DNA from: Acidobacteriota bacterium | GTDB lineage: Bacteria; Acidobacteriota; Vicinamibacteria; Vicinamibacterales; UBA2999 | Length of the DNA: 64,000 bases | NCBI GenBank assembly: GCA_020851565.1 | Contig: JADZCN010000031.1 | Span: 51,962 to 115,961, forward strand | Reading direction: 5' to 3' | Part shown: in pieces, positions 5,474 to 19,786 of the stretch | Layout: each line of letters opens with the position of its first letter | How positions within the stretch are numbered: position 1 is the first letter of the stretch | The notes under the pieces: model-generated | Database searches by the model: none | What the model saw: only the letters and a program-made list of their open reading frames with translations | What the model was told of the DNA's origin: nothing | Position numbers and translations under genes: made by a program

Positions 5474-7117
5474 GTGCCGGGTGCCTCGCCACGGCCGCTG
5501 CCCGAGCCGCGGGCCCCTCACATCGTGGCACTCGGCGCCGGCTACGCCTCGCTCTTCGCCTATCGGGCGCTTGCGCCCCTGCTCCGTGCCGGCCGCGTGC
5601 GGATGACGGTCATCGACCGCAACAACTACCACTGCTTCCACGGGCTGGTCCCCGAGGTGCTCGGGGGCACCCTGCAGGCCAACACGATCCTGAGCCCCGT
5701 GCGCCGCCTGTTCCGCCATGCACGGTTCTGCTACGGCGAGATCACGGGCATCGACGTCGCCGCCCGGCAGGTCACCTTCGGCCGCGGTCTCGATGGCAAG
5801 GAGTTCGTCGTCCCGTACGATCACCTGGTGGTGGGCCTCGGGACCGTCGACGAGCTCCGCCGCATTCCAGGCATCGCCGAGCACGCGCTGCAGCTCAAGT
5901 CGTTCCCCGAGATCCTCGAGCTCCGGCATCGCCTGATCACGATGCTGGAGCTCGCCGACATCGAGACCGATCCCGAGGAGGTGGAGCGGCTCCTCACCTT
6001 CGTGGTGGCCGGCGGCAATTATGCCGGTATCGAAGTGGCGGGCGAGCTCTCCGACCATCTCCCGCGCCTCGCGCGGCAGCGCTTCCCGAACGTTCCCGTC
6101 GAGCAGATCCGCATCGTCGTCGTCCAGTCCGGCCCGCGCATCCTGCCGGAGCTCGCCGAGCACTACCCGGGCCTCCAGGCGAGCGCGGAACGGACGCTCG
6201 CCGGCAACCCGCACGTCCGGATCCTCACGGGCGTGCGCCTTGCCTCGGCCACCACGGAAGCCGCCGTCCTCAGCACCGGCGAGCGCGTGCCGACGCGGAC
6301 CATCATCAGCTGCATCGGGACGGCGCCTTCTCCGCTTCTGGACCAGATTCCCGCCGTGCGGGACGGCCTGGGCCGGCTGGTCGCCGACGCGTGCCTTCGC
6401 GTCCAGGGCGTCAGCGACGTCTGGTCGGCGGGGGATTGCGCGGCGGTGCCGCACCCTGACGGCGGGACCGTTCCGCCCCTGGCGATCTGGGCCATGACCG
6501 CTGGCCGGCAACTCGGCCGCAACATCGCGGCCACCCTTGCCGGCCGGGAGCCCCGACCGTATCGCTTCACCGGCCTCGGCGACGCCTGCGTCCTCGGGCA
6601 CCGGCAGGCCGTCGGGCACTTGAAGGGCATCCAGCTGACCGGCCTGGTGGGATACATCGGCTGGCGCTACTTCATGGTGCGGTACCTGCCCGCATGGGAG
6701 AAGAAGGTCCGCCTCGTCGTGGACTGGCTGCTCGCGCCCTTCTTCGGGCGCGATCTCATCGACACGCGCGTGCACCGTCCGATCGATGTCGTGTCCGTCC
6801 TCTACGAGCCGGGCCAGGACATCGTCCGGGAGGGCGATATCGGGCACGAGCTGTACATCATCCGCTCCGGCGAGGTCGAGGTCTGGAAGCGCCGGGGCGA
6901 GAGCCCGGGCAGCGACCTGGTGGCCACGCTCGGCCCAGGCGAGCGGTTCGGAGAAGTGGCCGTTTTCCGAGGGGTGCGCCGCACGGCCACGGTCCGGGCG
7001 CGCACGCGCGTCGAACTGCTCCGCGTGCGGCGGGACGCGGCGGTGGCACTCACCGAATCGAGCGCGGACATTGCGCGCACGCTGGCGGCCGCAGGGCCCG
7101 GCACCCACGGGAGATAA
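5474..7117 (+). CDS. Type II NADH dehydrogenase-like FAD/NAD(P) oxidoreductase with C-terminal cyclic-nucleotide-binding domain
   Basis: Rossmann start IVALGAGYASLFAYRAL; NNYHCFHGLVPEVLGG; VWSAGDCAAVPHPDGG; C-terminal CNB motif ELYIIRSGEVEVWKR...FGEVAVFRGVRRTATVRA. Confidence 0.88.
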   Translation: MPGASPRPLPEPRAPHIVALGAGYASLFAYRALAPLLRAGRVRMTVIDRNNYHCFHGLVPEVLGGTLQANTILSPVRRLFRHARFCYGEITGIDVAARQVTFGRGLDGKEFVVPYDHLVVGLGTVDELRRIPGIAEHALQLKSFPEILELRHRLITMLELADIETDPEEVERLLTFVVAGGNYAGIEVAGELSDHLPRLARQRFPNVPVEQIRIVVVQSGPRILPELAEHYPGLQASAERTLAGNPHVRILTGVRLASATTEAAVLSTGERVPTRTIISCIGTAPSPLLDQIPAVRDGLGRLVADACLRVQGVSDVWSAGDCAAVPHPDGGTVPPLAIWAMTAGRQLGRNIAATLAGREPRPYRFTGLGDACVLGHRQAVGHLKGIQLTGLVGYIGWRYFMVRYLPAWEKKVRLVVDWLLAPFFGRDLIDTRVHRPIDVVSVLYEPGQDIVREGDIGHELYIIRSGEVEVWKRRGESPGSDLVATLGPGERFGEVAVFRGVRRTATVRARTRVELLRVRRDAAVALTESSADIARTLAAAGPGTHGR

Positions 7118-7122
7118 CCGCA

Positions 7123-18621: not shown

Positions 18622-18628
18622 CCCTGTG

Positions 18629-19786
18629 ATGGAAACAGCATTCCGGCGCATGACGTCGCTCCTGGAGCGGCGGTATCACTCGTTCTTCCCGGCGGACCGC
18701 GCCGTGCCCTTCGCGTTGAGGACCGACACCGGCCTCAGCCACACCTTCGGCAGCGGTACGCCGGCCTTCGCGATTGTGGCGCGCAACAGCAGCGGCATCG
18801 CGGCGCTCACCACGCTGGACACCTCCCGGATTGCCGAGGCCTACATGCGTGGCGACCTCGACGTGGACGGCGACCTGATGTCGGTCCTGACCCTGCGGAC
18901 GATGTTCTCGGAGCGGCACCCGTTCCAGTTCGTCTGGCGGTTCGTCCAGCCGCTGCTGTTCGGGCGGGTGCAGAGCGATCGGAAGTGGATTGCCGAGCAC
19001 TACGACTACCCGGCGGAGTTCTACCTGTCCTTCCTCGACCGGCGGCACCGCTGCTACTCGCAGGCCATCTTCGAGCGGGACGACGAGCCGCTCGAGGATG
19101 CGATGACGCGCAAGCTCGACTTCGCCCTGGACGCGGTGGGCGCCAGGCCCGGGGATCGCATCCTCGACATCGGCGGCGGCTGGGGCGCGATGACCGAATA
19201 TGCCGGCCAGCGCGGCATCCGTGTCACCTCGCTCACCATTTCCCGCGCATCGGAGCAGTTCCTCACCGAGTTGATTCAGCGGCAGCAGCTGCCCGCCCGC
19301 GTGGTCTTCGAGCACCTGCTGGACCATCGCACCGCCGAGCCGTACGACGCGATCGTAAACCTCGGCGTCACTGAGCACCTGCCGTACTACCGCGACACGC
19401 TGGCCAAGTACCTCGAGCTGCTGAAGCCCGGTGGGCGTATCTACCTGGACGCGTCGGCCTCGCGCGTCAAGCACTACCAGTCGGCCTTCCTCGTGAAGTA
19501 CCTCTACCCTGGCAACGGGTCGCAGCTGTGCCTGCACGAGTACCTGGAGGAGGTGGCGCGCTCGCCGTTCCGCCTGCTCGGCGTGTACGACGACCGGCAC
19601 AGCTATTACCTGACGACGAAGGCCTGGGCCGAGGGCCTGGACCGCTCGCGCGAACTGGTCGAAGGACGGTGGGGCCCGGAGGTGTACCGGAAGTTCCGGC
19701 TGTACCTCTGGGGATGCGCGCAGGCATTTCAGGACGACCTGGCGCAGGCCTACCGCTGGGTGCTGGAGAAGCCTGCAGCGGGCTGA
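18629..19786 (+). CDS. Cyclopropane-fatty-acid synthase-like SAM-dependent methyltransferase
   Basis: HYDYPAEFYLSFLDRRHRCYSQAIF; ILDIGGGWGAMTEYAGQRGIRVTSLTIS; NLGVTEHLPYY; ATG at 18629. Confidence 0.85.
   Translation: METAFRRMTSLLERRYHSFFPADRAVPFALRTDTGLSHTFGSGTPAFAIVARNSSGIAALTTLDTSRIAEAYMRGDLDVDGDLMSVLTLRTMFSERHPFQFVWRFVQPLLFGRVQSDRKWIAEHYDYPAEFYLSFLDRRHRCYSQAIFERDDEPLEDAMTRKLDFALDAVGARPGDRILDIGGGWGAMTEYAGQRGIRVTSLTISRASEQFLTELIQRQQLPARVVFEHLLDHRTAEPYDAIVNLGVTEHLPYYRDTLAKYLELLKPGGRIYLDASASRVKHYQSAFLVKYLYPGNGSQLCLHEYLEEVARSPFRLLGVYDDRHSYYLTTKAWAEGLDRSRELVEGRWGPEVYRKFRLYLWGCAQAFQDDLAQAYRWVLEKPAAG

What the first reader, a model, noticed from the sequence alone, without database searches (positions are those of the whole stretch)
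5474..19786. Candidate undescribed system: nine-gene cNMP-responsive lipid-oxidation (oxylipin-like) cluster
Nine genes all on + with short gaps or overlaps: NDH-2-CNB, RoxA-like di-heme cytochrome, FIH-like cupin, alpha/beta hydrolase, VAO-type FAD oxidase, alpha-dioxygenase-like peroxidase, catalase-fold protein, CNB-patatin, CFA-synthase-like methyltransferase. Families map onto a plausible route: lipase release or remodelling of fatty acids, dioxygenation, hydroperoxide handling, further oxidation. Two members near either end carry CNB domains, suggesting common second-messenger control. The functional pathway is inference; the gene order and motifs are visible.
Basis: partly seen in the sequence, partly recalled or inferred. 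Interest (0 to 1): 0.92.

Follow-up and report, generated by a model that had tools for sequence, protein, structure and literature searches.

The report
Bacterial fatty-acid oxidation gene cluster
An uncultured bacterium carries nine neighbouring genes; two of them, a plant-type fatty-acid oxygenase and a small catalase-like partner, form a pair seen in many unrelated bacteria and probably make oxidised fatty-acid products, while the full nine-gene set was found only in this lineage.

Summary
The nine co-directional genes are real and tightly packed (gaps -4 to +60 bp). Gene 6 is an alpha-dioxygenase-type (α-DOX) haem protein: it keeps rice α-DOX residues His157, His311, Tyr379, His382 and Arg559 and has a ~230-aa N-terminal extension. 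Gene 7 is a small catalase-related protein; its model matches a mycobacterial catalase-related protein and coral allene oxide synthase before true catalases. Genes 1 and 8 have CNB domains with the expected phosphate-binding motif.

The nine-gene order does not recur: among ~170 α-DOX loci only a 100%-identical metagenome fragment shows it. The α-DOX + catalase-like pair does recur across phyla, and related α-DOX genes sit beside lipoxygenases, RoxA-like cytochromes and P450s. Other sub-blocks recur singly (α-DOX near NDH2-CNB; CNB-patatin + CFA synthase).

The pair has a precedent (Nostoc punctiforme 10S-dioxygenase + catalase-related lyase). So: new variant of a known kind, not a conserved nine-gene system. 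Cyclic-nucleotide control is plausible but unproven; a second locus in the same genome (cyclase, lipoxygenase, double-CNB patatin) supports it indirectly. Gene 3 lacks the usual Asp iron ligand and gene 4 has Cys at the nucleophile position, so neither fits its assumed role simply.

The parts
5474..7117 (+). g1: type II NADH dehydrogenase fused to a C-terminal cyclic-nucleotide-binding domain
   Evidence: Pfam PF07992, PF22366 (just under cut-off), PF00027; over 1000 homologues, the best 120 all with the same fusion; GEVAVFRGVRRTA cassette
7122..9461 (+). g2: di-haem c-type cytochrome, distantly RoxA/cytochrome-c-peroxidase-like, probable lipoprotein
   Evidence: CAFCH and CMACH; NF040606 E 1e-11, below its cut-off; N-terminal LVCVGCN lipobox-like stretch read from sequence
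9522..10571 (+). g3: Cupin_8/JmjC-like protein with HxA in place of HxD
   Evidence: Cupin_8 E 6e-38; aligns to JMJD5, LHCAP against LHQDP
10578..11729 (+). g4: alpha/beta hydrolase with Cys at the nucleophile position (true start may lie further in)
   Evidence: PF00561; VVHCFGS; relatives include the C-terminal domain of GMC-oxidoreductase fusions
11764..13212 (+). g5: VAO-type FAD oxidoreductase
   Evidence: FAD_binding_4 E 2e-16 and weak ALO; GGRH motif; 12 close homologues in the class
13248..15713 (+). g6: alpha-dioxygenase-type haem protein with ~230-aa N-terminal extension
   Evidence: PDB 4kvj/4hhr E 1e-88 to 1e-92; H323, H484, Y556, H559, R733 match rice α-DOX catalytic residues
15710..16747 (+). 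g7: small catalase-related haem protein
   Evidence: AF2 pLDDT 91; Foldseek 3e4y, 3e4w, 3dy5, 1u5u ahead of true catalases; profile match in PDB; overlaps g6 by 4 bp
16786..18621 (+). g8: cyclic-nucleotide-binding domain + NTE P-loop-like domain + patatin phospholipase
   Evidence: PF00027, PF24179, PF01734; GGGARG, GTSMG, DGA and GEMAILSDDRRSA intact
18629..19786 (+). g9: cyclopropane-fatty-acid-synthase-like SAM methyltransferase
   Evidence: PF02353 E 1.5e-42

Best explanation
[quoted passage not shown] Proposed course (inferred): the CNB-gated patatin g8 frees acyl chains from membrane lipid; g6 uses a Tyr556 radical to add O2 at C2 of the free fatty acid, the carboxylate being held by His484 and Arg733, giving a 2-hydroperoxide; g7 turns the hydroperoxide into an aldehyde one carbon shorter, a 2-hydroxy acid or a related product. 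Flavin enzyme g5, cytochrome g2 and NDH-2 g1 would oxidise products or carry electrons, and g9 would modify unsaturated chains of the same lipids. Shown here: gene families, intact catalytic residues, tight packing, recurrence of the g6-g7 pair. Inferred: substrate, product, order of steps, cNMP gating, co-transcription.
For: g6 residues (H484, Y556, H559 in all 117 homologues, R733 in 116, distal His in 94). g7 fold and nearest structures. g6-g7 4-bp overlap. α-DOX next to a catalase-like gene in Gemmatimonadota, Bacteroidota, Chloroflexota, Rubrivivax, Planctomycetes and relatives in the window's own family. Among 111 dereplicated α-DOX loci: lipoxygenase 31 hits within 3 kb against 0 at 4-10 kb, catalase-like 17 against 6, RoxA-like 15 against 7, P450 6 against 0. 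Characterised precedent for a haem fatty-acid dioxygenase with a catalase-related partner in Nostoc. α-DOX near NDH2-CNB in L221 and CNB-patatin next to CFA synthase in L234. A cyclase-lipoxygenase-CNB-patatin locus in the same genome.
Against: The full order is not conserved. g3 (HxA) and g4 (Cys) fit no obvious step. Only about half of the well-flanked α-DOX loci (28 of 59) have any of the four partner families nearby. No activity, product, transcript or ligand data. The α-DOX residues predict C2 chemistry, whereas the Nostoc partner enzyme acts on a 10-hydroperoxide.
Confidence: 0.55

Rival explanations
1. Only g6-g7 (perhaps with g2) are a functional unit; the other genes are independent lipid and redox genes that came to share direction and spacing in this lineage.
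For: The other genes occur without g6-g7 elsewhere: g3 alone at 74% identity in G049, g4 in GMC fusions, g5 without g6 in 12 close class loci, g1 as a large independent family.
Against: Eight short junctions in one direction between divergent and convergent neighbours. Some sub-blocks recur: g1 type near α-DOX (L221), g8-g9 adjacent (L234), g5 beside g8 type (L205, L207).
Confidence: 0.3
2. g6 is not an α-oxidation enzyme but oxygenates mid-chain like the Nostoc 10S-dioxygenase, and g7 is a lyase or allene-oxide-synthase-like enzyme making short volatile or cyclic products.
For: Gene pairing as in Nostoc; g7 structurally near coral allene oxide synthase; lipoxygenase and P450 neighbours elsewhere.
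Against: g6 aligns far better to α-DOX than to cyclooxygenases and keeps His and Arg at the α-DOX carboxylate positions; the 10S-DOX motif table gives a Tyr and a different terminal motif in that region (compared by eye).
Confidence: 0.2
3. A stress or phage-defence module: a cyclic nucleotide activates the CNB-patatin (Pycsar/CBASS-like logic), and the oxidative enzymes destroy membrane lipid.
For: PADLOC hits of g8 to Pycsar and phospholipase effectors; own-genome locus L245 with a TPR-S cyclase and double-CNB patatin.
Against: The hits are generic CNB and patatin domain matches; no cyclase in the nine genes; g6 and g7 have no PADLOC hit.
Confidence: 0.06
4. g5 and g9 make methyl-branched fatty acids (BfaA/BfaB-like) as a separate function inside the cluster.
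For: BfaA is an FAD-binding oxidoreductase and BfaB a SAM methyltransferase encoded by overlapping genes (PMC5660069): the same two broad classes.
Against: g5 and g9 are not adjacent here, and the g5 homologues fetched have no CFA-like gene nearby. Orthology to BfaA or BfaB was not tested.
Confidence: 0.1

Closest known systems
Nostoc punctiforme linoleate 10S-dioxygenase + catalase-related 10S-hydroperoxide lyase (Brash et al. 2014, as cited in PMC9579011, PMC9410191, PMC13049297)
   Same: Haem fatty-acid dioxygenase paired with a catalase-related protein
   Different: g6 is of the α-DOX branch with an N-terminal extension; predicted C2 rather than C10 chemistry; seven further genes. The original paper was not held.
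Plant and cyanobacterial α-dioxygenases (PDB 4kvj, 4hhr; PMC8720084)
   Same: All five key residues conserved; 550-residue alignment
   Different: Extra N-terminal region; separate clade from rice and the short bacterial forms
Catalase-related proteins: M. avium 3e4w/3e4y, coral allene oxide synthase 1u5u/3dy5
   Same: Catalase fold, small size, RxxxY proximal motif
   Different: About 20% identity; own substrate unknown
Coral and cyanobacterial catalase-lipoxygenase fusions (PMC11719350)
   Same: Catalase-related enzyme tied to a fatty-acid dioxygenase
   Different: Separate genes; α-DOX here, with lipoxygenase only in related loci
BfaA/BfaB branched fatty-acid genes (PMC5660069)
   Same: FAD oxidoreductase plus SAM methyltransferase acting on fatty acids
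   Different: Genes not adjacent here; orthology not tested

Membership tests
α-dioxygenase (g6) | Catalytic Tyr and proximal His (rice Y379, H382) | tested here: met
   Y556, H559; in all 117 homologues
α-dioxygenase (g6) | Distal His (rice H157) | tested here: met
   H323; His in 94 of 117 homologues
α-dioxygenase (g6) | Carboxylate-binding His311 and Arg559 | tested here: met
   H484 in 117 of 117, R733 in 116 with one gap
α-dioxygenase (g6) | 2-hydroperoxide or shortened aldehyde formed from fatty acid | not testable with these tools
   needs an enzyme assay
Catalase-related hydroperoxide enzymes (g7) | Catalase fold without the C-terminal catalase domains | tested here: met
   345 aa; model pLDDT 91; Foldseek top hits
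Catalase-related hydroperoxide enzymes (g7) | Proximal Tyr motif RxxxY and distal His | tested here: met
   R326-Y330 and the ALH His; the RxxxY is nearly invariant in the family, the distal His is not kept in all members
Catalase-related hydroperoxide enzymes (g7) | Turnover of fatty-acid hydroperoxide | not testable with these tools
   needs an assay
Conserved nine-gene system | Same gene order in distant taxa | tested here: not met
   only in L105, 100% identical
Conserved g6-g7 pair | Adjacent or near in several phyla | tested here: met
   L013, L021, L025, L027, L032, L037, L038, L106, L130, L135, L172 and others
cNMP-regulated proteins (g1, g8) | CNB domain with phosphate-binding Glu and Arg | tested here: met
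   GEVAVFRGVRRTA, GEMAILSDDRRSA
cNMP-regulated proteins (g1, g8) | Binding of, and activation by, a cyclic nucleotide | not testable with these tools
   needs binding assay
FIH/JmjC 2-oxoglutarate hydroxylase (g3) | HxD/E...H iron triad | tested here: not met
   HxA (H206, A208) aligned to HxD of JMJD5
Pycsar/CBASS effector (g8) | Cognate cyclase in the same operon and full-length effector match | tested here: not met
   no cyclase among the nine; domain-level PADLOC hits only
BfaA/BfaB (g5, g9) | Orthology to BfaA and BfaB | not tested
   no reference sequences compared

The most novel reading that the evidence does not exclude
Bacteria of many phyla share a modular oxylipin toolkit (N-terminally extended α-DOX, lipoxygenase, catalase-related enzyme, RoxA-like cytochrome, P450), and in this lineage it is gated by cyclic nucleotides through a CNB-patatin and a CNB-NDH-2: a bacterial counterpart of phospholipase-triggered oxylipin signalling.
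Probability: 0.22. Interest if true: 0.8.

Novelty: new variant of a known kind. Interest (0 to 1): 0.55.

Why it matters
Few bacterial oxylipin pathways are characterised, and lipoxygenase genes are reported in fewer than 0.5% of sequenced bacterial species (PMC6612559 abstract). The recurrent α-DOX, lipoxygenase and catalase-related neighbourhoods found here point to an uncharacterised enzyme family and give concrete enzyme pairs to assay. If the CNB-patatin gates the pathway, second-messenger control of fatty-acid oxidation in bacteria becomes directly testable.

Tried and rejected
Conserved nine-gene system: rejected by tblastn and HMM scans over 80 genome loci and 80 metagenome loci and class-level searches for single genes. 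g3 as an ordinary hydroxylase: doubted, Asp ligand is Ala. g4 as a plain Ser lipase: doubted, Cys at the nucleophile position. Anti-phage membership: generic domain hits only. Promoter and terminator scans at both ends found nothing, which says little in GC-rich DNA. GC content does not set the cluster apart from its flanks. Genome-wide catalase-like search in 36 α-DOX genomes: matching contig coordinates by hand, about 12 of the 20 strongest hits lie within about 10 kb of α-DOX, but the profile was built partly from these loci, so this is supportive only. Literature searches found no description of bacterial α-DOX/lipoxygenase/catalase clusters; the library is open-access only, so absence is weak.

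Full report
What is there. The nine + strand ORFs between 5474 and 19786 are open and close together. With the most likely starts the junctions are +4, +60, +6, +34, +35, -4, +38 and +7 bp. The upstream gene is divergent and the downstream gene convergent, so the nine look like one transcription unit; this is inferred from spacing, since promoter and terminator scans were empty. Families are as.

Gene 6. Residues 235-790 match plant α-DOX structures 4kvj and 4hhr (E 1e-88 to 1e-92). Counting in that alignment, with the chain offset of 3 suggested by the single Tyr-to-Phe difference between 4kvj and 4kvl, g6 H323, H484, Y556, H559 and R733 correspond to rice H157, H311, Y379, H382 and R559; residue roles are from my knowledge of the α-DOX literature, and His-311/Arg-559 are named in the title of a paper cited in PMC8720084. 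Across 117 homologues H484, Y556 and H559 are invariant, R733 is kept in 116 (one gap) and the distal His in 94. The first ~230 residues are an extra region; some homologues have TPR matches. In a FastTree of the core the window protein groups with Gemmatimonadota L013 and metagenome locus L106, while rice α-DOX groups with short bacterial and cyanobacterial forms (support 0.98). Only 9 of 396 phylum genomes have an α-DOX at E 1e-40, and apart from the window all match only from about residue 177 on or as split pieces. Horizontal acquisition is a reasonable inference, not tested.

Gene 7. No Pfam hit on its own, but 18 of 35 aligned relatives hit the catalase family and the family profile finds catalases in the PDB, 3e4w first. 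The AF2 model has pLDDT 91; Foldseek ranks the M. avium catalase-related protein first, then coral allene oxide synthase, then true catalases. The RxxxY proximal motif is nearly invariant in the family.

Does the order recur? In 80 genome loci and 80 metagenome loci anchored on g6, the other genes do not travel with it, apart from distant RoxA-like cytochromes. L105, 100% identical, has g2-g7 in order and is the same or a nearly identical organism. Homologues of g1, g6 and g7 (91, 94 and 83% identical) are each listed with a longest contig of 83,923 bases; I matched only the length, so a shared contig is likely, not proven. The next closest locus, L106 (74% in g6), has α-DOX, the catalase-like gene and an FMO-like flavoprotein, with a lone 131-aa CNB protein divergent.

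What does recur. α-DOX with a catalase-like gene within a few kb: L013, L021, L025, L027, L032, L035, L037, L038, L041, L130, L131, L135, L170-L172, and same-family L217 and L220. In 111 dereplicated loci, lipoxygenase hits number 31 within 3 kb against 0 at 4-10 kb, catalase-like 17 against 6, RoxA-like 15 against 7, P450 6 against 0, in 512 and 654 kb of scanned DNA. The seeds for lipoxygenase, RoxA and P450 were picked because they lay near α-DOX, so some bias toward near hits is built in. The lipoxygenase identity is confirmed by profile against the PDB. The order cat-αDOX-LOX-RoxA appears in L037, L038, L135 and L174. L220 has two RoxA-like genes divergent from α-DOX, an old-yellow-enzyme gene (PF00724) and the catalase-like gene.

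The cNMP theme. Both CNB domains keep the GE...RR(T/S)A cassette and the genome has two class III cyclases. L221 has α-DOX, a DUF1569 gene and NDH2-CNB in a row. L245, in the window's own genome, places a TPR-S cyclase, a lipoxygenase and a double-CNB NTE-patatin together. Cyclases stand beside α-DOX-LOX in actinobacterial loci, though mycobacteria have many cyclases. This supports but does not show cyclic-nucleotide control.

Mechanism and limits. The committed reading is in Best explanation. Weak points: g3 (HxA) and g4 (Cys) have no assigned step, and the roles of g1, g2, g5 and g9 are guesses from family. The product is unknown; the α-DOX residues favour C2 oxygenation over the mid-chain oxygenation of the Nostoc enzyme.

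Compared with what is known. The closest system is the Nostoc 10S-dioxygenase with its catalase-related lyase, which shares the pairing logic. g6 meets every sequence criterion of α-DOX tested. The nine-gene system as proposed fails the synteny test. Hence a new variant of a known kind.

Noticed in passing
L245 (window's own genome, contig 83, 30000-47704): Second locus in the same genome: TPR-S + class III cyclase (14259-16064 -), lipoxygenase (12652-14241 -), a 267-aa protein without a Pfam hit, and a patatin with two CNB domains (9528-11732 -), side by side. A cleaner candidate for cNMP-controlled lipid oxidation than the window cluster.
   Followed up: partly
window 9522-10571: g3 has HxA instead of HxD/E in the iron triad; its 74%-identical relative in G049 also has HCA. 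From general knowledge, HxA is seen in Fe/2OG halogenases; it could also mean an inactive protein.
   Followed up: no
window 10578-11729; L235 4939-8346: g4 has a Cys nucleophile motif (VVHCFGS) and its relatives include the C-terminal domain of GMC-oxidoreductase fusions.
   Followed up: partly
L045 6505-9825: One 1106-aa reading frame joins a DyP-like N-terminal part to a lipoxygenase-like part next to α-DOX.
   Followed up: no
L106 10298-11824; L013 8402-9865: FMO/Baeyer-Villiger-like flavoprotein beside α-DOX and the catalase-like gene in both closest relatives.
   Followed up: no
L234 8901-12201: CNB-patatin directly followed by a CFA-synthase-like gene in another family of the same order: the g8-g9 pair recurs.
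   Followed up: partly
L034, L041, L125, L137 catalase-like genes: The distal-His position appears to read N (ERAGNT) in this subgroup, so its chemistry may differ.
   Followed up: no
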